The translations under genes and the position numbers were made by a program. This document shows positions 38,610 to 58,376 of a stretch of 64,000 nucleotides of DNA, piece by piece; the stretch's first letter is position 1, and each line of letters opens with the position of its first letter. The notes below the pieces were generated by a model, which was not told the origin of the DNA, did no database searches, and saw only the letters and a list, made by a program, of their open reading frames with translations. The DNA is from Nocardia asiatica NBRC 100129 (GTDB taxonomy: Bacteria; Actinomycetota; Actinomycetes; Mycobacteriales; Mycobacteriaceae). Where the stretch lies: contig NZ_BAFS01000475.1 in the NCBI RefSeq assembly GCF_000308415.1, positions 1 through 64,000 of the forward strand, written 5' to 3'.

Positions 38610-38612
38610 ACC

Positions 38613-39761: not shown

Positions 39762-39797
39762 AGGCCGAACGACGCTCGACGACAGCGTCGATACCTC

Positions 39798-39840
39798 TTC
39801 GGAGGCTCATGGCTGCGCCATGGGCCTCCGAATTCTTTTC
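39798..39840 (+). terminator. Intrinsic terminator after the acyltransferase gene
   Basis: TTCGGAGGCTCATGGC (39798-39813) pairs with GCCATGGGCCTCCGAA (39817-39832) over 16 positions with one wobble and a three-base loop, followed by TTCTTTTC. It separates the SDR operon from the isonitrile synthase operon. The remaining 310 bases up to 40150 are relatively AT-rich, carry no gene I can see, and must hold the promoter of the next operon. Confidence 0.9.
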
Positions 39841-40150
39841 CTGTCCGTGGGAAATCTACTTGGTTGCCTACCGGTCCGGGCGGCGGTATCCTGAGAGTGT
39901 TCTAACCACGGAACCGGGTTATAGACGTGGGGGGTGTGTTCGACCGATGAACTGCGCGACTCGGATTTGGCTCTGAGCATCGGGGCTCGCCGATTTTGGG
40001 TTTCCGCTGGATTCCGGTTCCTACTTTCGTATTTACTCTGACGTTTTCTGACCGCAGACAGCTCACCGACGGCTCGATCCGCGAATGGCGGAAATTCGCC
40101 GTGCGGTTCGGTTGTGTGCGCTCATTTTGTCGGGTGTCAGGAAGGTAGTA

Positions 40151-41182
40151 ATGAGTACGACTGTCGACAATGGGTCCGAGCGCGTCGGCGAGCTCGGCCG
40201 AGCGGACGCCCAGGCCAGACCCGAGGACGTCGGGTCGGTCGCCACCCGGATACTGGGCATGGTCTTCGCGCGCCGGCGAAGTGCCGAGCCGGGGGCGGTG
40301 TGCGACGTGGCCCCCTGTGCGGAGTGTTTCGCACCGCATCTGACCAAGGTGATCCGCTACATCGAACTCGGCTTGCCGGTTCACTTCATCATCCCCGCCT
40401 TCCCGGCGAAGTCGCGCAACCGCCGCAAGACGCTGGGGCATCTGCCGGACATGGCCGAGGTGCTGGCGATCGAGTCCCTGCAAGGGTTCTGCGACCAGAT
40501 CTCCGCCGTGTACCGGCCGGGCGCCATCGTGACGATCTGCTCCGACGGTCATGTCTTCAGTGACACGCTGGGCATTCCGGATATTCACGTCGACCACTAC
40601 GGCGACGAGCTCCGTCGCGTGATCCGGTCGACCGGCGGCGGTTCCATCGGCCTGTACGGGTTGCGTGACGCCATGCCGGACATGGGATGGGACGAACGCA
40701 GGCGGCGCCTGCTGGACGAGTTCTCCGACGGCATCGACGTGCTGCGCGAGGCGGTCCGGACCGACCCCGCCGCCCGGCGGATGTTCAACGGAATCCATCG
40801 CTTCATGGTCGAGGACAACGCGGTGCTGATGCCCGAGCTGTCCGCCACCCAGCGGCGGAACCGATCGAAGGAGACGGCTTACGAAGTGGTGCAGCGCAGT
40901 CAGGCGTGGAGCCGCCTGATGGGGGAGACCTTCCCCGACGCGGTGCGGCTGTCGATCCATCCGCAGACCAATCACTCCGAGAAGATCGGGTTCCACCTCC
41001 TGCGGACGCAGGACAGCTGGCTGACGCCGTGGCACGGCGTGGTGCTCGACGACGGAACCAGCTACACGCTGGTCAAGCGGATGCAGGCCGAGGAACGGGG
41101 CGCTCGCCTGGTCTGGCGCAACAGTCGCCCCAGTCATTTCGTGCTCGGCGGGACGCCGGGGACCGAATTCCATCGAGCGTGA
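40151..41182 (+). CDS. Isonitrile (isocyanide) synthase, PvcA/IsnA-like
   Basis: A 343-residue member of the PvcA/IsnA/DIT1 family, which turns the amino group of Tyr or Trp into an isonitrile using ribulose-5-phosphate as carbon source. Family segments are clear: IRYIELGLPVHFIIPAFPAK, SRNRRKTLGHLPDMAE near the N-terminus, ICSDGHVFSD and VDHYGDELR in the middle, and RLSIHPQTNHSEKIG plus TPWHGVVLDDG in the C-terminal half. The ATG at 40151 follows GGAAGG; an ATG at 40085 in frame would add residues of non-coding appearance. It precedes a PvcB-like oxygenase by eight bases, the classic pairing. Tyr versus Trp use cannot be told. Confidence 0.92.
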   Translation: MSTTVDNGSERVGELGRADAQARPEDVGSVATRILGMVFARRRSAEPGAVCDVAPCAECFAPHLTKVIRYIELGLPVHFIIPAFPAKSRNRRKTLGHLPDMAEVLAIESLQGFCDQISAVYRPGAIVTICSDGHVFSDTLGIPDIHVDHYGDELRRVIRSTGGGSIGLYGLRDAMPDMGWDERRRRLLDEFSDGIDVLREAVRTDPAARRMFNGIHRFMVEDNAVLMPELSATQRRNRSKETAYEVVQRSQAWSRLMGETFPDAVRLSIHPQTNHSEKIGFHLLRTQDSWLTPWHGVVLDDGTSYTLVKRMQAEERGARLVWRNSRPSHFVLGGTPGTEFHRA

Positions 41183-41190
41183 GGAAGCGC

Positions 41191-41994
41191 ATGACGAAAA
41201 GTTTGAACGAAGCACTGCTGGCAGGACAGCAACTCCGCCCGTTCGGCCGCGTGGTGACCTCCCCGGCGGAGGGGCAGACGCTCGCGGAGGTGCCGATCGA
41301 GGAACTGCTCGCGCTGACGCTCGGCGCGAAGGTGGTGGTACTGCGTGGTTTCGGCCTGCTCGGCAAGGCGGAACTGGAGAACTACTGCCGTGCGGCCGGG
41401 GAGATCCTGCAGTGGAACTTCGGCTCGATTCTCGACCTGGTGGTGCGGGATACCGCAGAGAACTACCTGTTCGACAGAGGCGATGTCCCCTTCCACTGGG
41501 ACGGCGCGTTCGCCGAGCAGGTGCCGCGGTTCTTCCTCTTCCAGTGCGTACAGGGCGAGGGCGCCGGCGGTGAGACCGTGTTCTGCGACAGCGTCCAGGT
41601 CTATCGGGAAGCGCCCGAAGACCTGAAGCAGCTGTGGGCGCGGACCACGATCACCTACCGGACCGACAAGCTCGCGCATTACGGCGGTCTCGCCGAATGG
41701 CCGCTGCTGGCAACCCATCCGGCCACTGGCGAGACGACGATCCGATACGCCGAGCCGTTGGATCCCGCACGCTACGCCAATCCACTGTTCCTGACCGTCG
41801 ACGGTATTTCCGCCGAGGACGGGGTGCGTGTGCTGGAGGACTTGCGTGAGCGGTTGCACGACCCGCGCTACTGCTACGCCCACGAATGGCGAACCGGCGA
41901 CATCGTCGTGGCCGAGAACCACGCGCTGCTGCACGGCAGGAACGCGTTCACCGAATCGGTGTCCAGGCATCTGCAGCGCATCCAGATCATCTGA
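41191..41994 (+). CDS. Fe(II)/2-oxoglutarate-dependent oxygenase, PvcB/IsnB-like
   Basis: A 267-residue TauD-superfamily oxygenase. HWDGAFAE gives the first His and Asp of the iron facial triad, and NHALLHGRNAFTESVSRHLQ gives the distal His and the 2-oxoglutarate-binding Arg. In known systems (PvcB, IsnB) the partner enzyme oxidatively decarboxylates or desaturates the isonitrile amino acid to a vinyl isonitrile or keeps the carboxylate. ATG 41191 follows GAGGAAG. The tight position between the isonitrile synthase and the halogenase argues for a shared pathway. Confidence 0.92.
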   Translation: MTKSLNEALLAGQQLRPFGRVVTSPAEGQTLAEVPIEELLALTLGAKVVVLRGFGLLGKAELENYCRAAGEILQWNFGSILDLVVRDTAENYLFDRGDVPFHWDGAFAEQVPRFFLFQCVQGEGAGGETVFCDSVQVYREAPEDLKQLWARTTITYRTDKLAHYGGLAEWPLLATHPATGETTIRYAEPLDPARYANPLFLTVDGISAEDGVRVLEDLRERLHDPRYCYAHEWRTGDIVVAENHALLHGRNAFTESVSRHLQRIQII

Positions 41995-42021
41995 GTTATC
42001 AGCCATTAGAGAGGACTGTCA

Positions 42022-43818
42022 ATGGCTACATCGAACGCAAGACCAGCGAGCGAGTACGACGTCGTCATCATGGGCGGTGGTCCCGCAGGGTCGACCCTCG
42101 CCGCCATGCTCTGCCGCGAGACCGATCTGCGGGTGGCGGTCTTCGACCGCGAGGTGTTCCCGCGCGAACACATCGGCGAATCCGGCGCGCACCCGCTCGT
42201 TCCCGTCCTGCAAGCGAGCGGCGCCCTGGAAAAGGTGCTCGCGAGTGAGTGCTGGATCCAGAAATTCGGCGGAATCTATCAGTGGGACACCGATCGGCCG
42301 TTCGTGGGCTTCTTCGAGCATTCGGACTACCTGGTCGACGGCGTGTACCGCTGGTCGGTGCATGTGAATCGCGCCGAATTCGACACCGTGCTGCTGGAGC
42401 ACGCCGAATCCTCCGGCGCGCACGTCTTCCAGGGCGTCCGGATCGTAGGGTTCCACCCCGGCGAAGCGGATGCCACGATCGTGCTGGAAGACGGAACCGA
42501 GATCAAGGCAGGCTATTTCGTCGACGCGTCCGGCCGGGCGAATCAGGTGGCGGCCCGCGGTTCCCAGCGCGACAAGCAATGGCTGTCGGAGTACCGCAAT
42601 GTGGCCGTCTGGTCGCATTACCGCAACTGCGTGCCCGCCCAGCGGGCGGACGGTGACTGGAACGTGTTCCGCGCCGACGACCTGTCCCCGATCTACGCCG
42701 TGGCCTTCGAACACGGATGGGTGTGGTACATCCCGACGCCTCGCCTGGTCGACGGCGTCCGGGAGAACGTGTGGTCGATCGGCATCGTGACCAATCCGGA
42801 GTCGATCGCCCGGGTGGACCTGCGTGATCCGGACATCTTCCTCAAGACGATCAAATCGATTCCGGTACTGCGGGACCTGGTCGCGGACGCCGAACCGATT
42901 CGCGCCGAGATGCTGACGGCCACCAATTACTCCCGCATCAGCGAATGTTTCGGTTCGTACTCCGATCGCTGGATGGCGGTCGGGGACGCGTCGTACTTCG
43001 TGGATCCGCTGTTCTCCTCGGGGATGTCGTTCGCCGTCACGCAAGCGTGGGCGGCCGCCCTGGTTCTGCGCAAGACCTTCGACAAGGAGCTGGACGAGCA
43101 GGCCAAGGAAGACCTCTGGCGTGACTACGACGTCGAGTGGCGCGGGATGGCCGAGACGTGGGCCCTGAGCATCGACCAGTGGTATCACGAGATCTCGCGG
43201 TCGCATCCGGAGAGTCCGTACTGGAGCGCGCAGGGGCGGCGAGTCGGGGTCGACAACGCCACCGAGGGGACATTCCAGGCGCTGCTGAACACCGCACTGG
43301 TGCCCGACCTGCTGAACATCATGACGAAGGGGACGCGCGACCCGCGTGACCTCGCCACGGAAGGGCCCTACCTCCGGGCCTTCACCGCGGCCGACGCGGT
43401 CGAGTTGGCCGCGGACGACGTCGTGGCGCTGTCTCCGGATGCCCGGATCCGCGCGGGTCTGGGCGCGGACATCCCGGGTTTCAAGGGCATGTCGCCGCCG
43501 TTCGAGATTCCGCAGGCGGCACGCGAAGGGCTGGCGATGTATTGGCGCGACCCCATCGCCAACAGCGACGCCGCGCCGTCGCCGCTGGCCGATCCGGTGC
43601 CCTGCCACCGGATCTATTCCGCGGCCGATCCCGGCATCGAGGTGCGGTGCCTGGAGCGGGACGGGGGCGAAGCGCTGTGGGAGGCGCTGAACCGCGGTCC
43701 CGCGCGCTGGTCGGAGCTGGCGCCACAGCTGTCGGTGCTGCAGGGGCGGGCACTGAAGCGCTTGATTCGCGCCGGGTTGGTGGTCGTCGGGCCGGAAGCG
43801 GATCAGCAGGTCGACTAG
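42022..43818 (+). CDS. Flavin-dependent halogenase
   Basis: A 598-residue FAD-dependent halogenase-like protein. VVIMGGGPAGSTLAAMLCRE binds FAD, FPREHIGESGAHPLVPVL is the early conserved segment, KFGGIYQW carries a candidate catalytic Lys, and HGWVWYIPTP is the WxWxIP signature that distinguishes halogenases from monooxygenases. DRWMAVGDASYFVDPLFSSG is the GD motif region. The last 150 residues are an extension ending in a winged-helix-like LWEALNRGPARWSELAPQL. Phenol, pyrrole or carrier-bound halogenases (CmlS/PltA-like) are nearer in look than free-tryptophan types. AGAGAGGACTG precedes the ATG. Chlorination of a tyrosine-derived isonitrile is the simplest hypothesis. Confidence 0.88.
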   Translation: MATSNARPASEYDVVIMGGGPAGSTLAAMLCRETDLRVAVFDREVFPREHIGESGAHPLVPVLQASGALEKVLASECWIQKFGGIYQWDTDRPFVGFFEHSDYLVDGVYRWSVHVNRAEFDTVLLEHAESSGAHVFQGVRIVGFHPGEADATIVLEDGTEIKAGYFVDASGRANQVAARGSQRDKQWLSEYRNVAVWSHYRNCVPAQRADGDWNVFRADDLSPIYAVAFEHGWVWYIPTPRLVDGVRENVWSIGIVTNPESIARVDLRDPDIFLKTIKSIPVLRDLVADAEPIRAEMLTATNYSRISECFGSYSDRWMAVGDASYFVDPLFSSGMSFAVTQAWAAALVLRKTFDKELDEQAKEDLWRDYDVEWRGMAETWALSIDQWYHEISRSHPESPYWSAQGRRVGVDNATEGTFQALLNTALVPDLLNIMTKGTRDPRDLATEGPYLRAFTAADAVELAADDVVALSPDARIRAGLGADIPGFKGMSPPFEIPQAAREGLAMYWRDPIANSDAAPSPLADPVPCHRIYSAADPGIEVRCLERDGGEALWEALNRGPARWSELAPQLSVLQGRALKRLIRAGLVVVGPEADQQVD

Positions 43819-43827
43819 GTCGGCGAC

Positions 43828-44766
43828 ATGAGTTCAGTAGCTGTATTGGCCGTCGACGACGTGATCCCGTTCGATCTCTCGGTTCCCATCGAGATCTTCG
43901 GCCGGGCCGAGCAGGAGGACGGAACTCCGGCGTACGAAGTCGAGGTGTGCGGCGTGAGCTCCGATGTTCCGTCGAAGTTCTTCGGGATCTCGTGTCTGCG
44001 CGACATCGACTATCTCGAGGAGGCCGGAACGATCATCGTGCCGGGATCGATGAGTTATCGATCCCGGCCGTCGGATCGCTTGCGAAGGGCATTGGTTCGT
44101 GCCCACGAGCGTGGGGCGAGAGTGGCATCGATTTGCCTGGGCGCGTTCACTCTCGCTTCGGTGGGGCTGCTCGACGGAAGACGGGCGACGACGCATTGGA
44201 TGGCTGCCGCCGAGTTGTCGCGGAGCTATCCGCGGGTGCGGGTGGATCCCACCGTGCTGTATGTGGACAGCGGGTGCATCCTGACTTCGGCCGGCGCGGC
44301 GGCCGGGCTGGATCTGTGCCTGCACATGGTGCGGCGGGATTACGGGGCCGCGGTGGCGGCGGCCACCGCCCGGCTCTCGGTGATGCCGCTGACCCGCGAC
44401 GGAGGGCAGGCACAGTTCATCGCGGAACGCCCGCGCTCCGAGGCGGACAGCAAGTCGATCAATCCCATCCTGGAATGGGCGGACACGATGCTCGGTGAGA
44501 AGATCACCGTGCTGGACCTCGCGGACCGAGCCGGAGTCAGCAAACGCACGCTGATCCGGCGCTTCCACGAGCAGGTCCGGATGACGCCGAACGAGTGGCT
44601 CCAGACCGCCAGGGTGCGAAAGGCGCAGGAGTTGCTGGAGACGACCATCCTAACGATGGAGTGCATCACCGATCGAACGGGGTTCGCTTCGGTGGCCGCG
44701 TTCCGGAAGGTCTTTCGCAAGACCGTGGGCGTGACGCCCCAGGCCTACCGGCGGGCCTTCCGCTGA
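43828..44766 (+). CDS. AraC-family regulator of the isonitrile/halogenase cluster
   Basis: A 312-residue GATase1-AraC regulator, paralogous to that at 33354. The sensor domain reads VAVLAVDDVIPFDLSVPIEI, IIVPGSMSYRSR, ASICLGAFTLASVGLLDG and THWMAA. The DNA-binding domain has two helix-turn-helices (ITVLDLADRAGVSKRTLIRR; LTMECITDRTGFASVAAFR) and ends FRKTVGVTPQAYRR. The ATG is nine bases past the halogenase stop, so it is probably co-transcribed and pathway-specific. Activator or repressor role and effector are unknown. Confidence 0.9.
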   Translation: MSSVAVLAVDDVIPFDLSVPIEIFGRAEQEDGTPAYEVEVCGVSSDVPSKFFGISCLRDIDYLEEAGTIIVPGSMSYRSRPSDRLRRALVRAHERGARVASICLGAFTLASVGLLDGRRATTHWMAAAELSRSYPRVRVDPTVLYVDSGCILTSAGAAAGLDLCLHMVRRDYGAAVAAATARLSVMPLTRDGGQAQFIAERPRSEADSKSINPILEWADTMLGEKITVLDLADRAGVSKRTLIRRFHEQVRMTPNEWLQTARVRKAQELLETTILTMECITDRTGFASVAAFRKVFRKTVGVTPQAYRRAFR

Positions 44767-47671: not shown

Positions 47672-49270
47672 TCAGTCGAGGAGAGCCGGTTCTTTGTGAG
47701 CGTCCTGCCGCATCGGGTCGACGGCGGGGTCGATGTCGATCGTGTGGCGCAGCGGCCGGTTCGGCAGCAATGCCGCCGCGACGAGGGCCACGGCTGTCGC
47801 TACCGCGGCGATGAGGAAGATCCGCCCGGTCGCGTCACCGTAGGAGGCGCGCACGATGGTCGCGATGGGCCCGGGCAGGGCGTCCAGGTCGAGATTGCTG
47901 CCGCCGGCGGACTCGGTGCGGATGCCGATTCTGGCGAATCCCGCCGCGGACAGCTCGCCGACCCGGGTGGCCAGCACCGACCCCAGCACCGAGACCCCGA
48001 TGGCGCCGCCGAAGGTGCGGAAGAAGGCGACACTGCTCGACGCGGCGCCGATGTCGTGCACGCTCACCGTGTTCTGCACGGCCAGGACGAGGTTCTGCAT
48101 CATCATGCCGACGCCGAGGCCGACGACGGTGATGTAGACGCCGACCAGCCACAGGCTCGTCGCGTGGTCGATCGTCGAGAGCAGCGCGAATCCGGCGACC
48201 AGCAGCGCCGCTCCGGAGACCACGAAACCCTTCCACTTGCCGCGCCGGGTGATCAGCTGCCCGGAGCCCACCGAGGCGATCAGCATGCCCGCGACGAGCG
48301 GAATGGTCAGCACGCCCGCCGCGGTCGGCGAGTAGCCGCGCGCGGTCTGGAAGTACTGGCCCAGGAAGGTGGTGGCGCCGAACATGCCGACGCCGACCGC
48401 GACGGAGGCGACGATCGCCAGGCCCGTAGTGCGTTCGGTGACGATCGGCAGCGGGATGATCGGCGACTCGGCGCGGGATTCCACCCACACGGTCGCGATC
48501 AGCAGCAGTACGCCGGAAGCGACGTAGATCGCCGATTCCCGCGAGACCCAGTCGTAGTAACCGGCTTTCCCGGCGAACGACACCCAGATGAGCAGCACCG
48601 ACACGCCGCCGGTCAGCAGAGCCGCGCCGAGCCAGTCGATCGACACGCCGTCCTTGCGATCGGTGGGCAGCCGCAGCGTCCGCTGCAGCAGCGCCAGCGC
48701 GATCACCGCCAGCGGCACGCACACGAAGAAGCACCAGCGCCAGCCCAGCGCGCTGTCGACGATGACACCGCCCAGGACCGGACCGCCGGACATCGACACA
48801 GCCATCACGGCGCCCATGTAGCCGGAGTAGCGCCCGCGTTCGCGCGGCGCGACGATGGAGCCGATGATCGCGACGACGAGCGCGGTCAGCCCGCCCATGC
48901 CGATGCCCTGGATGACGCGGGCGACCAGCAGCAGGGGGACGTTGCTCGTGAACCCGGCGATGACGGAGCCGACGACGAAGACGACGATGGCCGACTGGAC
49001 CAGCGTCTTCTTGTTGAACAGGTCGGCCGCCTTGCCCCAGATCGGCGTGGAGGCCGCGTTGGCCAGCAGCGCCGAGGTGATGACCCAGGCGTAGGCGGTC
49101 TGCGAGCCCTGGAGATCGCCGATGATGGTGGGCAGCGCGGTGGCGACGATCGTGGTGCTCAACAGCGCCGTGAACAACGCCGCGAGCAGCCCGGTCATCG
49201 CTTCCAGCACTTCGCGGTGGGTCATCGCGGACGGGTCGCGTCGCGTCACCGGCTCGACTGAACTAGACAT
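47672..49270 (-). CDS. DHA2-family (EmrB/QacA) drug:proton exporter
   Basis: A 532-residue major facilitator with 14 predicted membrane helices. The first helix region GLLAALFTALLSTTIVATAL has the family motif D1-like segment; AYAWVITSALLANAASTPIW, GRYSGYMGAVMAVSMSGGPV (motif C) and GWRWCFFVCVPLAVIALAL follow. A large loop lies between helices 13 and 14. It starts inside the end of the MarR gene (eight-base overlap), so MarR and exporter form one operon under the twin operators at 49773-49817. Multidrug efflux is expected; the two neighbouring natural-product clusters make product export a possibility. Confidence 0.93.
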   Translation of the reverse strand: MSSSVEPVTRRDPSAMTHREVLEAMTGLLAALFTALLSTTIVATALPTIIGDLQGSQTAYAWVITSALLANAASTPIWGKAADLFNKKTLVQSAIVVFVVGSVIAGFTSNVPLLLVARVIQGIGMGGLTALVVAIIGSIVAPRERGRYSGYMGAVMAVSMSGGPVLGGVIVDSALGWRWCFFVCVPLAVIALALLQRTLRLPTDRKDGVSIDWLGAALLTGGVSVLLIWVSFAGKAGYYDWVSRESAIYVASGVLLLIATVWVESRAESPIIPLPIVTERTTGLAIVASVAVGVGMFGATTFLGQYFQTARGYSPTAAGVLTIPLVAGMLIASVGSGQLITRRGKWKGFVVSGAALLVAGFALLSTIDHATSLWLVGVYITVVGLGVGMMMQNLVLAVQNTVSVHDIGAASSSVAFFRTFGGAIGVSVLGSVLATRVGELSAAGFARIGIRTESAGGSNLDLDALPGPIATIVRASYGDATGRIFLIAAVATAVALVAAALLPNRPLRHTIDIDPAVDPMRQDAHKEPALLD

Positions 49271-49751
49271 CTGCTTCCTGACTCTCTTTCGGAACCGGCT
49301 GGTGCGCGGCGCTCTGCGCGTGCGTGGTCAGTGCGTTGCGGAGTTTCTGCACGGCGGCGCAGGCCTGGTCGGCGTCGGCTTGGCTCCAGTCGGCGAGGAC
49401 GTTCTGCAGGCCCCGCGCTCGCGACCCCCGTACGCGGTGCAGCAGATCGCGGCCTTCGTGGGTCACCCGGAGGAGGGTGGCCCGGCCGTCGGCGGGATCG
49501 GCGTGCCTGCTGATGTGGCCCGCGGCGACGAGTTCGGTGACGTGCCTGCTCAAGGCGCTCGGACTGATGCACAGGTCCACGGCCAGGTCCACCTGCCTGC
49601 ACGGCCCCTTGGATTCGAGCGTGCCGAGCACGCCGATGCCACCCGGGAGCAGTTGCCCTTCCTCCGGGTGGGCGAGCACGGTGCGGATCGCCCGGCCCAT
49701 CAGATAGAGCTCTTTGATCAGGCTTTGAGCGGTATCGGGTGAGACTGTCAT
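49263..49751 (-). CDS. MarR-family repressor
   Basis: A 162-residue MarR regulator. The winged helix is clear: GPCRQVDLAVDLCISPSALS then RHVTELVAAGHISRHADPAD with the wing DGRATLLRVTHEGRDLL. Flanking helices form the dimer interface. ATG 49749-49751 is preferred; the GTG two codons earlier overlaps the GGAG. It is the first gene of the exporter operon and the promoter carries two near-identical dyads 28 bases apart, the usual arrangement for MarR autoregulation relieved by a drug-like ligand. Confidence 0.92.
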   Translation of the reverse strand: MTVSPDTAQSLIKELYLMGRAIRTVLAHPEEGQLLPGGIGVLGTLESKGPCRQVDLAVDLCISPSALSRHVTELVAAGHISRHADPADGRATLLRVTHEGRDLLHRVRGSRARGLQNVLADWSQADADQACAAVQKLRNALTTHAQSAAHQPVPKESQEADV

Positions 49752-49772
49752 GTCCACTCCAGGCGAAATAAG

Positions 49773-50023: not shown

Positions 50024-51688
50024 ATGCAGCCCAGCTTCGTTCACCACGCCAGGCAGCAAATTTTCGAATACGGGGCGACCAGGTCGTTCACCTACCTGCA
50101 CGAGACCGGGCGTGAGCTGACCGAAGAGGTCGCCACCTACCTCGATCTCGACCGCGACGCCAGGGCCGTCGCCGCCTGGCTGGCCGGGCGTCCGGAATCT
50201 ACGCGGCCGGTCGTGCTGCTCTACCACGACGGACTGGCTTTCCTGCGAACGTTCCTCGGCTGCCTGTACGCGGGGGTGATCGCCGTGCCCGCGCCCCTGC
50301 CGCACGACGAGCGCGGCGCCCGCCGGGTGGCGGGGATCGTCACCGATTCCGGCGCTCGGTTGGTGCTCACGACCAGCGACGTCCAGCCGCTCGTCGCGCA
50401 CGCGACCAGCGTGGCGGTCGCCGCCACCGACCGTCCGCTGGGTGATCCGGACCAGTGGCGGATGCCCCGCATCGGTTCCTCGACGGTCGCCTTCCTCCAG
50501 TACACGTCGGGGTCGACCGGCGACCCCAAAGGCGTCGTCGTCACGCACGGCAACCTCATGCACAACGAAGCCGCCATCGTCTCGATCGGGTTGGACGACG
50601 CCGCCGTCGGTGTCAGCTGGATTCCGCACTTCCACGACATGGGCCTGATCGGCATGCTGCTCGGGTCGCTGTACGTCGGGGCGAGCTTGGTGTTCATGGC
50701 CCCGACGACCTTTCTGAAGCATCCGGTACGCTGGCTGCGGGCCATCAGCGAGTACGGCGCCACCTATACCGCCGCGCCGAATTTCGCCTACGACTTGATC
50801 GCCCGCCGCGTGACCGACGAACAGCTGGCCGAACTCGATCTGTCCTCGCTCCGGATCGCTCTGAGCGGCGCCGAGCCGGTGCGCGAACGGACCATCGCGG
50901 CCGTGGTGGAGCGTTTCGCGCCCGCGGGCCTGCGTCCGGCGTCGATCCTTCCCGCCTACGGCTTGGCCGAGACGACGCTGCTGGCAAGCGTCGGACCCCG
51001 CGAAGCGGCGCCGGTCTATCTCGATGTGGGCGGTAGATCCCCGCTCGTCGGGTGCGGACAGGCGGCCCTCGGCCTGGATGTCCGCATCGTCGACCCGGAT
51101 ACCGGGGCGGAAGCGGCGCCGGGCGAGGTGGGAGAGATCTGGATCGGCGGCGCGAGCGTCGCCGCGGGTTACTGGAACCGCCCCGACGAGTCGCGCGAGA
51201 CGTTCGGCGCCTACCTCGGCGCGCAGGGACCATTCCTGCGAACCGGTGACCTCGGTCTACTGCACGAGGCCGAGCTGTACGTCACCGGGCGCCGCAAGGA
51301 CCTCCTGATCGTCCACGGCCGCAACCTCTATCCGCAGGACATCGAGGAACTGGTGCGCGGCCTGCATCCGGCGCTCGGGGCCGCCGGTGTCGCCGTCTCC
51401 GTCGACGCGGGCGGCCGGGAACGTCTCGTCGTGCTGCAGGGCGTCAAGACAGCCCGGCAGGGCGACACCACCCTCGCCGAGCTGACCTCGGCGATCAAGA
51501 TCGCCGTGGCCCGCGGGTTCGACATCGGGGCGCCGAACGTCGTGCTCGTGGAGCCCCGATCCGTACAGCGCACCACCAGCGGGAAGGTCCAGCGGGCCGC
51601 GATGCGGGAGTCGTTGCTGGCCCATCGCGTCGAGGGTGTCCTGCACGAGGATCTCGAACCGGCGCTGAGCCGATCTCTGACCGTCTGA
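50024..51688 (+). CDS. Fatty acyl-AMP ligase (FAAL)
   Basis: A 554-residue acyl-adenylate-forming enzyme that activates a fatty acid and loads it on an acyl carrier protein. FLQYTSGSTGDPKGVVVTHG is the P-loop, WIPHFHDMGLIGMLLGSLY the typical FAAL HxxDM segment, LPAYGLAETTLLAS the adenine-binding motif, RTGDLGLLHEAELYVTGR and KDLLIVHGRNLYPQDIE the hinge. The C-terminal domain is short and ends GKVQRAAMRESLL with the catalytic Lys. ATG 50024 has GAGGAA at eight bases; longer in-frame starts cross the palindromic region. It leads the FAAL-ACP-PKS operon, and its partner is presumably the ACP encoded 26 bases downstream. Confidence 0.94.
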   Translation: MQPSFVHHARQQIFEYGATRSFTYLHETGRELTEEVATYLDLDRDARAVAAWLAGRPESTRPVVLLYHDGLAFLRTFLGCLYAGVIAVPAPLPHDERGARRVAGIVTDSGARLVLTTSDVQPLVAHATSVAVAATDRPLGDPDQWRMPRIGSSTVAFLQYTSGSTGDPKGVVVTHGNLMHNEAAIVSIGLDDAAVGVSWIPHFHDMGLIGMLLGSLYVGASLVFMAPTTFLKHPVRWLRAISEYGATYTAAPNFAYDLIARRVTDEQLAELDLSSLRIALSGAEPVRERTIAAVVERFAPAGLRPASILPAYGLAETTLLASVGPREAAPVYLDVGGRSPLVGCGQAALGLDVRIVDPDTGAEAAPGEVGEIWIGGASVAAGYWNRPDESRETFGAYLGAQGPFLRTGDLGLLHEAELYVTGRRKDLLIVHGRNLYPQDIEELVRGLHPALGAAGVAVSVDAGGRERLVVLQGVKTARQGDTTLAELTSAIKIAVARGFDIGAPNVVLVEPRSVQRTTSGKVQRAAMRESLLAHRVEGVLHEDLEPALSRSLTV

Positions 51689-51714
51689 CCGCATACCTGC
51701 CCAGGAGCCGAAAC

Positions 51715-51981
51715 ATGTTCAGCACGACCGTTGTTCGCCCGACCGCGATCCAGGAGTGGCTCATCGAGCGCGTGGCAGACTACACCGAACGCGCACCCTC
51801 GCACGTGGACCCGGTCGTCCCGCTCGCCGAGCTGGGCCTGGACTCCGTGTCCGCGGTGAACCTGTGCGGCGAGATCGAGGACCGCTGGTCGCTCGAGGTC
51901 GACCCGGTCCTGGTGTTCGACTACCCGACCATCGCCGACATCGCCGCGTACATCGCCGCCGAACACGCCCTCGCCGCATGA
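51715..51981 (+). CDS. Stand-alone acyl carrier protein
   Basis: An 88-residue carrier protein. LAELGLDSVSAVNLCGEIED contains the Ser that receives phosphopantetheine, and DPVLVFDYPTIADIAAYIA is the typical last helix of PKS-type carriers. ATG 51715 follows CCAGGAG; the stop overlaps the PKS start (ATGA), so the two are translationally coupled. It most likely takes the acyl group from the FAAL and presents it to the ketosynthase of the next protein. Confidence 0.93.
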   Translation: MFSTTVVRPTAIQEWLIERVADYTERAPSHVDPVVPLAELGLDSVSAVNLCGEIEDRWSLEVDPVLVFDYPTIADIAAYIAAEHALAA

Positions 51982-54900
51982 CCGACATCGCTCTCGTCGG
52001 CCTCGACTGCCGGTTCCCGCAAGCACCCGATCCGGCCGCGCTGTGGCGGCTGCTGATCGACGGACGAGACGCGATCTCCGACGTTCCGGCGAGCCGCTGG
52101 AACGCCGCTGATTTCCACGACCCGGCCGGTGCGCCCGGCACGATCAACACCCGCAGCGGAGGTTTCCTCGACGACGCCGACGCCTTCGACGCCGAGTTCT
52201 TCGGCATCGCCCCACGCGAAGCCGAAACGATGGATCCGCAGCAGCGGTTGCTGCTGCAGGCCACCTGGCGGGCCTTCGAGGACGCCACGCTGGATCCGCG
52301 CGCCCAAGCCGGTTCCCGCACGGGCGTCTACGTCGGCGTGATGGCGAACGAATGGGCCAACCTGCAGATGAGCGACTATGCCGCCATCACGCCGCAGCAC
52401 GGCTCCGGCAACGGATACTTCATGACCGCCAACCGGCTGTCCTACCAATTCGACCTCAGAGGACCGAGTGTCGCGGTCGACACGGCCTGCTCGTCGTCAT
52501 TGGTCGCGATCCACCTCGCCTGCGGGGCACTGGCTTCCGGGGAATGCGATCAGGCGATCGCCGGTGGCGTCAACCTCGTGCTCACCCCCGCCGTCGGAGT
52601 CTTCTACACCCAGGCCGGACTTTCCGCGCCGGACGCGCGGTGCAAGCCGTTCAGCGGCAACGCCGACGGGATCGTGCGCGGCGAGGGTGTCGCGATGCTG
52701 GTGCTGCGGCGGCTGGCCGACGCGGAGGCGGCGGGGTTGCCGATCTACGCGGTGATCAAGGGCAGCGCGGTGAATTCGGACGGGCGCAGCAACGGCATCA
52801 CGGCACCGAACCGGTGGGCGCAGCAGCAGGTGATCGGCCAGGCGTGCGAGCGCGCCGGGGTGCGGCCCGACGAGGTGGACTTCCTCGAGGCGCACGGCAC
52901 CGGGACCGTGCTCGGCGACATGATCGAGGTCAACGCGCTGGGGCGGCTGCACGGGCGAGATCGGCGGCGGCCCTGCGCGATCGGTTCGATCAAAGGCAAT
53001 CTCGGCCACACCGAGGGCGCCGCGGGCGTCGCGGGCCTGATCAAGGTCGCCCTGAGCTTGCGGCACGGAGTCGTCCCGCCGTCGAGGTTCGCCGAGCAGG
53101 AGAACCCGCGACTGCGCATGGCCCAGCAGGGTTTGCGCCTGCTCACCGAACCGATGCCGCTGGAGGGTCCCGGCTACGGGGGAGTCAGCAGCTTCGGCAT
53201 CGGCGGCACGAACGCCCATATCGTGCTGGGCAGCGCTCCCGTCGCCGAGCCGCCCGCCGCATCCGGTGGCGGAGTGCTCACGCTGTCGGCGAACGACGCG
53301 GAAGGATTGCGGCGCAACGCGCACCGCCTCGCCGACGTGCTGGCCGCCACCCCGCAGGACCGATTCGCGCAACTGTGCTGGACGAGCAACCAGGTCAAGT
53401 CGTCCGGGCGTGCCCGGCTCGCCGTCGTGGCGGCCGATCGCGACGCCGCGATCGCGCGGCTGCGCGACGGCGCGGAAACCGGGATCGCGGGACCGATCGG
53501 CGTCGGCTGGATGTTCACCGGGCAGGGCGCGCAGTTCGCCGGAATGGCACGCGCGCTGGACGCGGCGAGCACGTTGTTCCGGGACGCGCTGGCAGAGGTC
53601 GACCAGGCCATGACGGCCCAGCTCGGTCGCTCCGTGCGCGCGCTGATGTGCGACGAGCGCACCGAGATCGACCGCACCGAACTCGCGCAACCGTCGATCT
53701 TCGCGATGGAGTACGCGCTGGCCAAGTCGCTCGCCGACGCCGGGGTGCGCCCCGCCTGGGTGATCGGGCACAGCATCGGCGAACTCACGGCCGCCGCGGT
53801 GGCCGGAGTGTTCGATCTGGACGACGCGTGCCGGCTCGTCGTCGCGCGCGGACGGCTGATGCAGCGATTGCCGGACGGCGGAGCGATGCTCGCCGTGCAG
53901 GCAGACCCCGCCGACGTCGCCGGACTGCTCGCCGACCAGCCGCAGGTCGCGCTCGCCGCCGTCAACGGCCCGAGCGAGATCGTGCTGTCCGGCGCGGCAG
54001 CGGCGATCAGCCGCATCCGGGACGTGCTCGCGAGTCGTGGGGTGCGGACCAAGGCGCTGAACGTCTCGCACGCATTCCACAGTCCGCTGATGGAACCCAT
54101 GCTCGAGCAGTTCCGGGCCGTCGCCCGCGAGTGCGTCTACCGCCGGCCCGCCGTACCGCTCTACTCGACCGTGCACGGGCGGCTGCTCGGCGAAGACGAG
54201 GCGATGGACGCGGCGTACTGGACCGAACACGTGCGCGCCACCGTGCGCTTCGGCGACGCCGTGCAGGCCGCGTTCGCCGCCGAGCCCAGCCACGTCGTCG
54301 AGATCGGGCCACGCCGTGTGCTCACCGCGCTGGTCGGCCGGGCCCGCCCCGATCTGGCCGCCCGTTGCCTGACACCCAGCCCGGGCCCCGGCGCGACGGG
54401 CGGCGAACTCGCCGACACCATCGCCGCGCTGTATCGCGACGGAGTCGGCCCCGACTGGGACCGGCTCTACGAACCGGCGCAGCGCGTCCGCCGCAGGCTG
54501 CCCGGATACGAGTTCTCCACCGACCAGCGGTTCTGGGTCGAACCGTCCACGACCCGAACGCCTTCCGCGCACACCGAGGAAACCTCCATGGACCAATTGA
54601 TCGCACTTTTCCGTGAGCAGAACGCCGTGCTGGCCGGTCTCGTCGGCGCCTCACCTACCGGCCACGTGCCGCAGCTCGCAGGCGGCACCACGGTCTCGCC
54701 GCAGGATCTCCTCGCGCAGCGCGTGGCGGGGCAGGCGGCGGAGGCCCGCGAACCGATGGCCCCCGCGGCGGTCGCCGGTGTGGTTCGCGCGGAAGCGGCG
54801 CGACTGAGCGGATTCCCCGTCGATCGGCTGCGCGAAGCCCAAACCTTGGGCGACGAATTGGGTTTCGACTCGCTCATGCTGACCGACCTGATCGCCGCGC

Positions 54901-56279
54901 TCGTTCGCACGCTGCCCGGATTGACCGTCGACCCGGGCCGGATCACGCCCGCGACGACGCTCGGCGACGTCACCGCGTACGTCACCACCCAGCTCGGTGG
55001 GTCTGTGCCCGACGAGGTCGCCCTTCACTCGGCGATCGGAATCGGCGCACCCGGCCCCGCCGTTGTCGAGCCGGAATACCGCATCTCCGATTTCGCGGAG
55101 GTTCGGGCCATCGCCGACCGGCTCTCCGGCGTCGAGACGCTCGGGGTGTTCAATCCCTACTTCCTGATCAACGACGGGATCACGCGGGACACCTCCGTCG
55201 TCGACGGCGCCTCGGTGGTGAACTTCTCCAGCTTCAACTACCTGGGCCTGTCCGGCCATCCCGCCGTCATCGCCGCGGTCCAGGACGCGGTGGCGCGCTA
55301 CGGCAGCTCGTGCTCGGCCAGCCGGATCCTCTCCGGTGAGAAGCCGGTGCATCGCGAACTGGAGAGCGAACTCGCGGCCCTGCTCGGCACCGAGGACGCC
55401 ATCGCACTGGTCGGCGGGCACTCCACGAACGTCACGATCATCGGGCACCTGGTCGGGCCGGAGGACCTGGTGATCCACGACAGCCTCGCGCACGACAGCA
55501 TCATGCAGGGCTGCAAACTGTCCGGCGCGACCCGCCGTCCGTTCCCGCACAACGACCACGCCGCCCTCGACGAACTGCTCACCGAGATCCGTCATCAGTA
55601 CCGGCGGGTGCTGATCCTCATCGAGGGGGTGTACAGCCAGGACGGCGACATCCCCGATCTGCCCGCCATCATCGCGGTGAAGAAGAAGCACAAGGCGCTG
55701 TTGATGATCGATGAGGCGCACAGCGTCGGCGTGCTCGGCGCGGGCGGCGGCGGCATCGGCGAATACTTCGGCGTCGATCGCGGCGACGTCGAGTTGTGGT
55801 CGGGGACGGTGTCGAAGGCGCTCGCCGGTTGCGGTGGGTATGTGGCGGGCAGCGCGGAACTGATCCGGTTCTTGAAGTACACGACTCCCGGATTCGTCTA
55901 CAGCGTCGGCATGACGCCGATGAACGCGGCCGCCTCGGCCGCGGCGATCCGGCAGTTGCGGTCGGACGGTGAGCCGCTGGAGCGCTTACGCCACAACTCA
56001 CGGCTTTTCCTGCGATTGGCCAGGGAGGCCGGCATCGACACCGGCGACAGCCACGACACGCCGATCGTCCCGTGCATCGTGGGCGACTCGCTGAAGACGT
56101 TGAAACTGTCGAACGCGCTGCTGCGCCGCGGCATCAACGTCAACCCGATCCTGTACCCGGCGGTGCCGGAAAACCTTGCGCGCCTGCGGTTCTTCGTCAC
56201 CGCCTGCCATACCGAGGACCAGATCCGCGACACCGTCAAGATCCTCGCCGAGGAACTGGCGCAACTCACCGAGAGCTGA
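51978..56279 (+). CDS. Type I polyketide synthase with C-terminal alpha-oxoamine synthase (KS-AT-ACP-AOS)
   Basis: A 1433-residue megaenzyme. The ketosynthase (residues 1-430) has Cys171 in DTACSSS, His306 in EAHGTGT and His344 in NLGHTEG. The acyltransferase (about 500-815) has GHSIGE with Ser599 and the HAFH motif of malonyl-CoA-specific domains. An ACP has Ser965 in GFDSLML. From about 1030 to the end is a PLP-dependent alpha-oxoamine synthase (KBL/AONS/SPT type): NFSSFNYLGLSGHP, SCSASRILSGEK, DSLAHDSI, IDEAHSVGVLG, and the PLP Lys1280 in SGTVSKALAG. No KR, DH, ER or thioesterase exists. The logical outcome is one malonyl extension of a FAAL-supplied fatty acid, then decarboxylative condensation with an amino acid, releasing a long-chain alpha-aminoketone. 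The amino acid is unknown. Confidence 0.93.
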   Translation: MTDIALVGLDCRFPQAPDPAALWRLLIDGRDAISDVPASRWNAADFHDPAGAPGTINTRSGGFLDDADAFDAEFFGIAPREAETMDPQQRLLLQATWRAFEDATLDPRAQAGSRTGVYVGVMANEWANLQMSDYAAITPQHGSGNGYFMTANRLSYQFDLRGPSVAVDTACSSSLVAIHLACGALASGECDQAIAGGVNLVLTPAVGVFYTQAGLSAPDARCKPFSGNADGIVRGEGVAMLVLRRLADAEAAGLPIYAVIKGSAVNSDGRSNGITAPNRWAQQQVIGQACERAGVRPDEVDFLEAHGTGTVLGDMIEVNALGRLHGRDRRRPCAIGSIKGNLGHTEGAAGVAGLIKVALSLRHGVVPPSRFAEQENPRLRMAQQGLRLLTEPMPLEGPGYGGVSSFGIGGTNAHIVLGSAPVAEPPAASGGGVLTLSANDAEGLRRNAHRLADVLAATPQDRFAQLCWTSNQVKSSGRARLAVVAADRDAAIARLRDGAETGIAGPIGVGWMFTGQGAQFAGMARALDAASTLFRDALAEVDQAMTAQLGRSVRALMCDERTEIDRTELAQPSIFAMEYALAKSLADAGVRPAWVIGHSIGELTAAAVAGVFDLDDACRLVVARGRLMQRLPDGGAMLAVQADPADVAGLLADQPQVALAAVNGPSEIVLSGAAAAISRIRDVLASRGVRTKALNVSHAFHSPLMEPMLEQFRAVARECVYRRPAVPLYSTVHGRLLGEDEAMDAAYWTEHVRATVRFGDAVQAAFAAEPSHVVEIGPRRVLTALVGRARPDLAARCLTPSPGPGATGGELADTIAALYRDGVGPDWDRLYEPAQRVRRRLPGYEFSTDQRFWVEPSTTRTPSAHTEETSMDQLIALFREQNAVLAGLVGASPTGHVPQLAGGTTVSPQDLLAQRVAGQAAEAREPMAPAAVAGVVRAEAARLSGFPVDRLREAQTLGDELGFDSLMLTDLIAALVRTLPGLTVDPGRITPATTLGDVTAYVTTQLGGSVPDEVALHSAIGIGAPGPAVVEPEYRISDFAEVRAIADRLSGVETLGVFNPYFLINDGITRDTSVVDGASVVNFSSFNYLGLSGHPAVIAAVQDAVARYGSSCSASRILSGEKPVHRELESELAALLGTEDAIALVGGHSTNVTIIGHLVGPEDLVIHDSLAHDSIMQGCKLSGATRRPFPHNDHAALDELLTEIRHQYRRVLILIEGVYSQDGDIPDLPAIIAVKKKHKALLMIDEAHSVGVLGAGGGGIGEYFGVDRGDVELWSGTVSKALAGCGGYVAGSAELIRFLKYTTPGFVYSVGMTPMNAAASAAAIRQLRSDGEPLERLRHNSRLFLRLAREAGIDTGDSHDTPIVPCIVGDSLKTLKLSNALLRRGINVNPILYPAVPENLARLRFFVTACHTEDQIRDTVKILAEELAQLTES

Positions 56280-56339: not shown

Positions 56340-56774
56340 GTATGCGGTGACCTCCCTCGACCGGGTCGTCCCCGGGTTACGGCGGCGGAGCCGTGTTGCC
56401 GCTGTGCGCGAGCCGAGCGCCTTGTGCTCGGACGTGCCGGTGTCGCTGTAGCATCTGTCCGGGACGCCATCGTTCCAGTTCGGGGCCGCTCGCGGCGCCG
56501 CTGGGCGGGTCGGGCGATGAGGGCGGGTTACGGCGGCCATTGGTGGGTCAGAGCCCTGCAGGGGGCATGTTCGACCGGATTTTCCGACAAGCGCCGCGGG
56601 TGCCGCGCCGGGTGAGGGTTCGAGCGGTGATCGGGCTCGTTTCGTGTGCGGCTTCCGGATCTCCTCAGGAGCGCCCCACGCCCGAGCCGATCGATGCCGC
56701 GGGCTACCACGGCGGCAAGGCCGGAAGCCTTCTCGCCGTCGACCGTAGCGACCGCATCGGAGGTTTGGGCAGCC

Positions 56775-58376
56775 ATGTTTCGCTCGATCGCGCGCATCGC
56801 GGTATCTCTGGCGGCGGCCACCGGCTTGTGGTTCCCGTCGTCGCCCGCGGTCGCGTCGGCGCCGTCGGACGTGGCGGTGACCGGCGGGCAGATCTCCGGC
56901 CGCGCCGTCGACGGAATCATCGAATACCTGGGCATCCCGTTCGCCGCACCCACCGGTGGCGATGCGCGATTCGGGCCGCCACGTCCGGCGCCGTCGTGGT
57001 CCGGCGTGCGGCCCGCCCGGGAACACGGGCCGCAGTGTCCGCAGAACGGATATCTGCCCGGTCTGCCGACCACCGGGCCCACCAGCGAAGACTGCCTGAC
57101 CATCGACGTGTACACGCCCGAGGGGGCCCGCGGCCGCCCGCTGCCGGTGATGGTGTTCTTCCACGGCGGCGGCTACGTCACCGGATCCAACAGTCAATAC
57201 GCCGCGCCCACCCGGATGGTCGCCGACGGTGACGTCATCGTGGCCGTGCCCAATTACCGCTTGGGCCCTCTCGGCTTCCTGTCGCTGCCCGAACTGGCGG
57301 CCGAGTCCGGCGGCGCCACCGGAACGGTCGGCATCCAGGACCAGCAGGCCGCCCTGCGGTGGGTCCGGGACAACGCGCACGTCTTCGGCGGCGATCCGGG
57401 CAACGTCACGATCTTCGGTGAGTCGGCCGGCGGTGGCAGCGTGTGCACGCATTTCGCCGCACCCGGCTCCGACGGCCTGTACGCCAAAGCGATCATCCAA
57501 AGCGGCTCCTGCGCACAATCACCTCTGGTGCCCGGCACTCGCGACAACGCTTTCGCGCGCTCGCAGCACTATTCGGAAAGCCTCGGATGCGCCGATCCCG
57601 CGACACGATTGAGCTGCCTTCGCGCGCTGCCCGTCGCGAAGCTCCTGGATTCGCCGTCCGTCCAGTTCGACGGGCCGACCCCGGTCTGGGTGCCGAGTAT
57701 CGACGGCGTCGTCGTCACCCGCACGCTCGACACCGCACTGGCGGGGGACACCCGCAAGACACCGATCATCGTCGGAAGCAACAGTGCGGAAGGAGCGCTG
57801 TTCGTAGCCGAATCCGACTACGCGCGCGGTCATCTTCCCGATGCGGCGAGCTATGAGCGTTACGTCCGCCAGTCGTTCGGCGGCTTCGCCGACCGTGTGC
57901 TGGCCGCGTACCCGATCGATCGGTATCCGTCCCCGGCCGCAGCCCAGACGGCGGTGATCACCGACGGTCTGTTCGCCTGTCCCGCACTGTTCACCAGCCG
58001 CGCCGCCCGCGATACCGGGCACCCGCTGTGGCAGTACGAGTTCGACCAAGCGCCGTTCGGTGCGCACAATCCGGTCCTGCCGGGCGCCTTCCACTCCGCC
58101 GAGCTTCCCTATCTGTTCACCAGCCTCATGCGCGTTCCGATTCCGTGGACCGGCGCATCCGCGGCATTCGCCGCACAGATGCAGCGGTGGTGGACCACTT
58201 TCGCGCACACCGGCGATCCGAACGGTCCCGGCTCGCCGCATTGGCCCGCCTGGCCGGAATCGACCGGACGTAACTCCGACGGGCCCGCGCTGACCATGCG
58301 GGCGACCGGAAGCTTCGTGACCGACGACTTCGCTCTCCGGCACCACTGTGCGTTCTGGTCCGAACGCGAGCGCTGA
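56775..58376 (+). CDS. Secreted type-B carboxylesterase
   Basis: A 533-residue carboxylesterase of the cholinesterase-like type B family. The signal peptide SIARIAVSLAAATGLWF ends near AVASAP. GGQISGRAVDGIIEYLGIPF and CLTIDVYTP are early family signatures, FFHGGGYVTGS the oxyanion hole, TIFGESAGGGSV the nucleophile elbow, NSAEGALFV the acid region and AFHSAELPYLF the catalytic His. ATG 56775 is chosen because it begins the signal peptide and follows GGAGG at 11 bases. It hydrolyses esters outside the cell. It lies after the PKS operon but a hairpin and a 495-base gap separate them, so a shared role is uncertain. Confidence 0.92.
   Translation: MFRSIARIAVSLAAATGLWFPSSPAVASAPSDVAVTGGQISGRAVDGIIEYLGIPFAAPTGGDARFGPPRPAPSWSGVRPAREHGPQCPQNGYLPGLPTTGPTSEDCLTIDVYTPEGARGRPLPVMVFFHGGGYVTGSNSQYAAPTRMVADGDVIVAVPNYRLGPLGFLSLPELAAESGGATGTVGIQDQQAALRWVRDNAHVFGGDPGNVTIFGESAGGGSVCTHFAAPGSDGLYAKAIIQSGSCAQSPLVPGTRDNAFARSQHYSESLGCADPATRLSCLRALPVAKLLDSPSVQFDGPTPVWVPSIDGVVVTRTLDTALAGDTRKTPIIVGSNSAEGALFVAESDYARGHLPDAASYERYVRQSFGGFADRVLAAYPIDRYPSPAAAQTAVITDGLFACPALFTSRAARDTGHPLWQYEFDQAPFGAHNPVLPGAFHSAELPYLFTSLMRVPIPWTGASAAFAAQMQRWWTTFAHTGDPNGPGSPHWPAWPESTGRNSDGPALTMRATGSFVTDDFALRHHCAFWSERER

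What the first reader, a model, noticed from the sequence alone, without database searches (positions are those of the whole stretch)
50024..56279. FAAL + ACP + KS-AT-ACP-oxoamine synthase: a predicted aminoketone lipid assembly line
Sequence shows a FAAL, a free ACP and a megaenzyme with complete KS, malonyl-type AT, ACP and PLP-dependent alpha-oxoamine synthase active sites, in overlapping genes with no reductive domain or thioesterase. Oxoamine synthases (SPT, KBL, AONS, PigH, Fum8) join an acyl thioester and an amino acid with loss of CO2. Inference: a fatty acid is activated, extended once to a beta-ketoacyl-ACP and released as a long-chain alpha-amino-beta-diketone or a cyclised derivative, a sphingoid-like lipid made by PKS logic. 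I know of no characterised nocardial product of this exact layout.
Basis: partly seen in the sequence, partly recalled or inferred. Interest (0 to 1): 0.78.

Follow-up and report, generated by a model that had tools for sequence, protein, structure and literature searches.

The report
Split RedL-type alkyl-pyrrolinone assembly line
Three neighbouring genes form a small assembly line that probably turns a fatty acid, one malonyl unit and one amino acid into a nitrogen-containing lipid; the layout is that of the known red-pigment enzyme RedL, but here it stands alone and its amino-acid pocket looks different, so the product may be new.

Summary
In detail: FAAL (50024-51688), ACP (51715-51981) and KS-AT-ACP-oxoamine synthase (AOS; 51978-56279), active sites intact, no reductase or thioesterase domain found. 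Three RedL homologues in Streptomyces-type red clusters align colinearly, AOS 52-54% identical; published RedL makes 4-keto-2-undecylpyrroline with glycine (passages). The window trio is not RedL itself: it is three genes, its AOS lies in another clade, RedH-, RedK- and RedM-type genes are absent from the window and the 30 other trio loci tested, and the amino-acid loop reads Ser-Arg, as in serine palmitoyltransferase, where the RedL clade has Thr-Pro. The trio is in at least 26 of 88 genomes of its genus, in about nine neighbourhoods that share no other gene throughout, so it is probably self-sufficient. Best reading: one non-reductive extension of an activated fatty acid, then AOS release with serine (less surely alanine or glycine) as an amino-diketone that closes to a 5-alkyl-pyrrolin-3-one. 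New variant of a known kind.

The parts
50024..51688 (+). Fatty acyl-AMP ligase (FAAL), 554 aa: activates the fatty-acid starter
   Evidence: PF00501 E 5.7e-65; FAAL-type NCBIfam models among the best hits, all below their cut-offs; closest solved chains are PKS adenylation domains and FAALs; 41-42% identical to the FAAL domain of three RedL homologues
51715..51981 (+). Free acyl carrier protein, 88 aa, GLDSV site
   Evidence: PF00550 E 7.2e-15; overlaps the next gene by 4 bases
51978..56279 (+). KS-AT-ACP-oxoamine synthase megaenzyme, 1433 aa
   Evidence: Pfam domains in order KS, AT, ACP, Aminotran_1_2; colinear with RedL homologues
51981..53234 (+). KS domain (residues about 2-419)
   Evidence: PF00109/PF02801; motifs intact
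53508..54341 (+). AT domain (residues 511-788), malonyl-type HAFH
   Evidence: PF00698; motifs
54783..54983 (+). Second ACP (residues 936-1002), DSL site
   Evidence: PF00550
55212..56240 (+). PLP-dependent alpha-oxoamine synthase domain (residues 1079-1421); PLP lysine Lys1280
   Evidence: PF00155; aligned to SPT 3a2b and KBL 1fc4
55311..55337 (+). Amino-acid loop CSASRILSG; Ser1115 aligns with the Val of KBL, Ser of SPT and Thr of the RedL clade
49263..49757 (-). Divergent MarR-type regulator; candidate regulator; its family is in 9 of 11 syntenic loci and in none of the 15 others
   Evidence: PF01047
47672..49270 (-). DHA2-like MFS efflux transporter; candidate exporter; its family is in 8 of 11 syntenic loci and in none of the 15 others
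   Evidence: PF07690; TIGR00711 just below cut-off
56646..58376 (+). Carboxylesterase-family protein downstream; in 11 of 11 syntenic loci and in none of the 15 others, so probably not part of the unit
   Evidence: PF00135

Best explanation
A self-contained, split RedL-type line. FAAL adenylates a fatty acid and loads it on the free ACP; KS condenses it once with malonyl loaded by the AT on the second ACP; with no reductive domain the product is a beta-ketoacyl-ACP; the AOS condenses it with the PLP-bound carbanion of an amino acid, losing CO2, to give a 1-amino-2,4-diketone that closes to a 5-alkyl-pyrrolin-3-one (3-hydroxypyrrole tautomer). Domain functions and conservation are shown by sequence; fatty-acid starter, malonyl extender, single extension, amino acid and cyclisation are inferred. 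The loop motif favours serine (about 0.5), then alanine (0.2) or glycine (0.2); with serine the product would be a 5-alkyl-2-(hydroxymethyl)pyrrolin-3-one, RedL architecture combined with the serine chemistry of RedN/PigH.
For: Same domain order and colinear homology with RedL homologues from three clusters that also hold RedX-, RedN-, RedM-, RedK-, RedJ- and RedH-type genes. Published RedL route: one extension, glycine, cyclisation (passages). KS, AT, ACP, AOS and FAAL motifs kept in the 26 genus loci apart from minor changes listed in the report. No KR, DH or ER. FAAL-PKS and ACP-PKS distances correlate 0.92 over 30 loci. Ser-Arg loop as in SPT, RedN and SgaB-type enzymes against Thr-Pro in 5 of 5 RedL-clade rows; PfSgaB uses serine almost exclusively; [quoted passage not shown]
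Against: No product or assay is known. In ThAOS a Ser at this position still accepted Gly, Ala, Ser and Aba, and Thr was active only with Ala, so the motif is weak evidence; AONS (alanine) also has Ser there. RedL needs RedK to reach a pyrrole; no RedK-type gene lies by any trio tested. In M. intermedium the megaenzyme looks decayed, so it is dispensable there. The FAAL is discordant with the PKS within the window's own syntenic group, which cuts against strict co-inheritance there.
Confidence: 0.62

Rival explanations
1. Plain RedL function: glycine is used and the product is a 4-keto-2-alkylpyrroline that feeds an alkylpyrrole or prodiginine-like pigment.
For: Identical domain order and colinear homology; a prodigiosin cluster has been reported in two N. 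salmonicida genomes (passage).
Against: AOS in another clade than RedL; loop motif differs; RedH, RedK, RedM C-terminus and the red methyltransferase give no tblastn hit at 1e-8 in the window or 30 other trio loci; no RedH-type match in the own genome at E<=1e-60 and the best RedK-like hit there is 33% identical on another contig.
Confidence: 0.18
2. Sphingoid-type lipid: the amino-ketone stays linear, is reduced and N-acylated, and serves as a membrane or envelope lipid, as with SgaAB.
For: AOS 51-52% identical to SgaB-type enzymes with the same loop; the sister clade's stand-alone KS-AT-ACP-AOS lies near an MMPL-family transporter in 10 of 13 loci by sequence cluster, which suggests an exported lipid. 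In R. koreensis (L086) FabG- and InhA-like reductase genes (by eye) lie some 5-6 kb downstream of the PKS.
Against: No ketoreductase domain in the trio and no reductase family recurring across neighbourhoods, though most flanking genes were not annotated; the extra beta-keto group makes ring closure likely, as with RedL.
Confidence: 0.12
3. Elongation is bypassed: the AOS takes the fatty acyl group directly, as the FAAL-AOS fusions of Planctomycetota must.
For: 28 of 80 named loci have FAAL and AOS in one frame without KS; one read by Pfam is FAAL-ACP-AOS.
Against: KS and AT active sites are conserved across the genus loci; these domains would otherwise decay.
Confidence: 0.06

Closest known systems
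RedL (undecylprodiginine biosynthesis, Streptomyces)
   Same: FAAL-ACP-KS-AT-ACP-AOS order; one non-reductive extension; AOS release; in three homologues AOS 52-54%, KS 48-50%, FAAL 41-42%, AT 37-42% identical
   Different: One fused chain; AOS loop Thr-Pro instead of Ser-Arg; different AOS clade; embedded with other red genes
RedN / PigH (ACP-ACP-AOS of bipyrrole formation)
   Same: beta-keto thioester plus serine, then ring closure (passage); Ser-Arg loop in four RedN-type rows
   Different: No FAAL, KS or AT in the chain (domain make-up from PMC3870968); AOS only 36-40% identical
SgaAB PKS-sphingolipid pathway (P. fluorescens MYb115, PMC12134224)
   Same: PKS feeding an AOS; serine use shown for SgaB; Ser-Arg loop in three plasmid-borne SgaB-like genes
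   Different: Iterative PKS with a separate AOS and an SDR; product is very long-chain sphinganine
FAAL-ACP-AOS fusions of Planctomycetota (A-CP-PLP2 in PMC3870968)
   Same: FAAL loading and AOS release
   Different: No KS or AT, hence no extension
Stand-alone KS-AT-ACP-AOS of Streptomyces and kin (L091-L100, L105, L108, L176)
   Same: Closest AOS relatives (sister clade, fork SH-aLRT 96)
   Different: No FAAL seen in the locus except in L105, several kb away; MMPL-family transporter near 10 of 13

Membership tests
RedL | Domain order FAAL-ACP-KS-AT-ACP-AOS, active sites intact | tested here: met
RedL | Single polypeptide | tested here: not met
   three ORFs; single chains in L177-L179
RedL | AOS groups with RedL AOS | tested here: not met
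   separate clades, SH-aLRT 100 and 99 (quick tree of 74 chosen rows)
RedL | Glycine as amino acid | not testable with these tools
   loop motif differs from the RedL clade
RedL | Lies in a red cluster with RedK, RedH | tested here: not met
alpha-Oxoamine synthase | Fold-type I PLP enzyme with conserved His, Asp, Lys and carboxylate-binding Arg | tested here: met
   E 5e-67 to SPT 3a2b; no NCBIfam AOS model reaches its cut-off
FAAL | Adenylating enzyme closest to acyl-AMP ligases | tested here: met
FAAL | Passes the acyl group to an ACP rather than CoA | not testable with these tools
   needs an assay
SgaAB PKS-sphingolipid pathway | Iterative reducing PKS plus separate AOS plus KDS reductase | tested here: not met
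   no KR, DH or ER, AOS fused

The most novel reading that the evidence does not exclude
A widespread actinobacterial three-gene line, independent of any pigment pathway, makes 5-alkyl-2-(hydroxymethyl)pyrrolin-3-one (3-hydroxypyrrole) lipids from fatty acid, malonate and serine: a lipid class with RedL architecture and RedN chemistry whose acyl tail has been changed by exchange of the FAAL gene between species.
Probability: 0.3. Interest if true: 0.7.

Novelty: new variant of a known kind. Interest (0 to 1): 0.5.

Why it matters
It gives a compact, testable three-gene route to a predicted nitrogen lipid carried by at least 26 of 88 genomes of the genus, with known RedL biochemistry as a guide. 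It also places RedL, PKS-made sphingolipids and planctomycete FAAL-AOS fusions in one related series of AOS-terminated fatty-acyl assembly lines that differ in number of extensions, reduction and amino acid.

Tried and rejected
Prodiginine pathway in the own genome: rejected (no RedH-type match at E<=1e-60, 9 of 14 candidates scored; best RedK-like hit 33% identical on another contig; no RedH, RedK, RedM or methyltransferase hit by any trio; hits of RedX and RedN there fall on the trio's own KS and AOS, plus one further KS-type hit at window 32084-32677, and the RedJ-type thioesterase hits five loci, see passing notes). Carboxylesterase, MFS and MarR as obligate parts: rejected, their families occur only in the window's syntenic group. 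Paper searches 'oxoamine synthase' + 'polyketide synthase' + 'fatty acyl-AMP ligase', 'Nocardia' + 'oxoamine synthase' and 'polyketide synthase' + 'serine palmitoyltransferase' + 'Nocardia' + 'sphingolipid' returned no paper. Structure prediction was not used, since sequence homology was decisive.
Full report
OBSERVATION. The region holds three co-directional genes: FAAL 50024-51688, ACP 51715-51981, and KS-AT-ACP-AOS 51978-56279. Pfam finds no reductive or thioesterase domain. All motifs are intact. A MarR gene and a DHA2-like MFS gene lie divergently upstream, a carboxylesterase-family gene downstream.

DISTRIBUTION. Of 88 genomes of the genus (own included), 21 hold the whole megaenzyme in one frame at 67-100% identity; one (G071) has its KS in a separate frame; four (G013, G018, G028, G043) hold a longer variant: 26 in all. 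This is a lower bound, because the match table was cut and only up to four candidates per genome were scored. In all 26 loci FAAL and then ACP precede it. By shared flanking genes the loci fall into about nine neighbourhoods. No flanking family is shared by all; those seen in more than one neighbourhood are a TrpB-like protein (named by eye; 6 loci, two groups) and two families in two loci each (neighbour genes called by GC-frame, at least 35% identity, 20-kb stretches). The named scan gave the trio in Nocardia niwae, N. exalbida, N. donostiensis, Rhodococcus koreensis, R. oryzae and Antrihabitans stalagmiti, and in a Solirubrobacteraceae MAG in the order ACP, FAAL, megaenzyme. Several of these contigs are short, so absence of a FAAL can be a contig end.

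CONSERVATION. In the 26 loci the KS, AT, second ACP and AOS motifs are kept, with these exceptions: the KS of L051 is in another frame, and L042 has Asp for the first His of HAFH. FAAL: the SGK lysine and RTGD are kept in 26 of 26; L048-L051 have Ser for the last Gly-type residue of the SGSTG motif and L039 and L051 lack the Lys of GRxKD. The first ACP has its serine in 26 of 26. dN/dS against five relatives is about 0.17-0.21 for the PKS, 0.24-0.30 for the FAAL, 0.19-0.54 for the ACP (NG86).

RELATION TO RedL. I recalled RedL as having this layout and then looked for it. Searches found RedX/RedN-type genes in four Streptomyces-type genomes (RedX by sub-cut-off hits to the PigJ family), and searches gave three full RedL chains with FAAL-ACP-KS-AT-ACP-AOS. 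The genes beside them are shared by all three regions; for one region Pfam calls them Epimerase (RedK-type) and PPDK_N/PEP-utilizers (RedH-type), while the thioesterase (RedJ-type), methyltransferase and adenylation (RedM-type) genes were named by eye. These are homologues found by context, not the characterised S. coelicolor protein. Identities to the window: FAAL 41-42%, ACP 35-44%, KS 48-50%, AT 37-42%, AOS 52-54%. RedL's published role was read in passages of PMC11188435 and PMC12654105. RedH, RedK, RedM C-terminus and methyltransferase give no hit at 1e-8 in the window or 30 other trio loci.

TREE AND MOTIF. In a quick ML tree (SH-aLRT only) of 74 AOS rows, chosen by me from 113 (window, SPT 3a2b and 111 of 146 hits), the trio clade (18 rows) has support 99 and its sister is the stand-alone KS-AT-ACP-AOS of Streptomyces and kin (fork 96). 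The RedL rows (5) form their own clade (100), as do the SgaB-type rows (100). The program warned of long branches for KBL, SPT and RedN, so their places are unsure. L067 sits in the RedL clade but its cluster was not examined; L070 has a RedH-type gene about 3 kb away. At the loop position that aligns with the KBL valine, 103 of 113 rows read Ser-Arg (window, RedN, SPT and SgaB-type included), 4 Ala-Arg, 5 Thr-Pro (the RedL clade), 1 Val-Arg (KBL). [quoted passage not shown] against a strict reading, ThAOS V79S still took Gly, Ala, Ser and Aba, and V79T only Ala. PfSgaB is nearly serine-exclusive (PMC12134224 section 8). So serine is favoured, not shown.

MECHANISM. Shown by sequence: domains, order, conservation, linkage of the three genes. 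Inferred: fatty-acid starter; malonyl extender (HAFH); one round; beta-keto product; amino acid; ring closure.

LIMITS. No structure was predicted, no chain length can be given, and the amino acid is uncertain. Most flanking genes in other genomes were not annotated. Start positions of the relatives' proteins were set by alignment. The literature library is open-access only.

PRIOR ART. A 2013 survey (PMC3870968, passages) lists A-CP-KS-AT-PLP2 from S. griseoviridis, A-CP-PLP2 from Blastopirellula and A-CP-Luc-PLP2 from N. brasiliensis, so AOS-ended PKS chains are known as a kind. A 2025 Nocardia survey (PMC12153302, passages including parts of the abstract) reports a prodigiosin cluster in two N. 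salmonicida genomes; whether it is related to this trio was not tested. A 2017 Rhodococcus survey (PMC5550956, word search only) does not contain the words aminotransferase, aminoketone or AMP-ligase. I found no paper on this trio in searches (no hits) or in the listings of searches, whose papers I did not all open.

Noticed in passing
window 50024-51688 with L031-L040: The FAAL gene is discordant with the PKS within one syntenic group: window vs L031 PKS 90% but FAAL 75%; L034 vs L036 PKS 93% but FAAL 75%. AU tests reject the PKS groupings on the FAAL data and a FAAL grouping on the PKS data (groups named after seeing the identities). Suggests exchange of the starter-activating gene.
   Followed up: partly
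L052-L055: In four genomes of the genus the trio follows hisF in what looks like a his-trp operon; hisI was called right after the megaenzyme in 3 of 4. In the own genome hisF and hisI are neighbours.
   Followed up: partly
L050, L051, L086, L087, L090: A RedJ-like type II thioesterase gene lies directly downstream of the megaenzyme in these five trio loci (Pfam on L050, L087, L090; tblastn on all five).
   Followed up: partly
L089, about 7.0-11.2 kb (Mycobacterium intermedium): A lone megaenzyme homologue looks decayed: second-ACP serine replaced by proline, AT motif GRS instead of GHS, and no FAAL or ACP gene found in the locus.
   Followed up: partly
L102, L119, L145: Proteins from deltaproteobacterial/myxobacterial MAGs have KS, AT, KR, DH-type and AOS domains in one chain (PP-binding called in two of three), a reducing version that resembles a fused SgaAB; L119 and L145 also have a FAAL gene upstream.
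   Followed up: partly
window 37431-44766: A PvcA/DIT1-type protein (40085-41182; isocyanide-synthase family, recalled) with acyl-CoA dehydrogenase-like, acyltransferase, Trp_halogenase/FAD-type and AraC-type genes: possibly a separate small cluster.
   Followed up: no
L176 (S. anthocyanicus plasmid NZ_CP109572.1): A plasmid-borne KS-AT-ACP-AOS gene next to an MMPL transporter, annotated only as aminotransferase.
   Followed up: no
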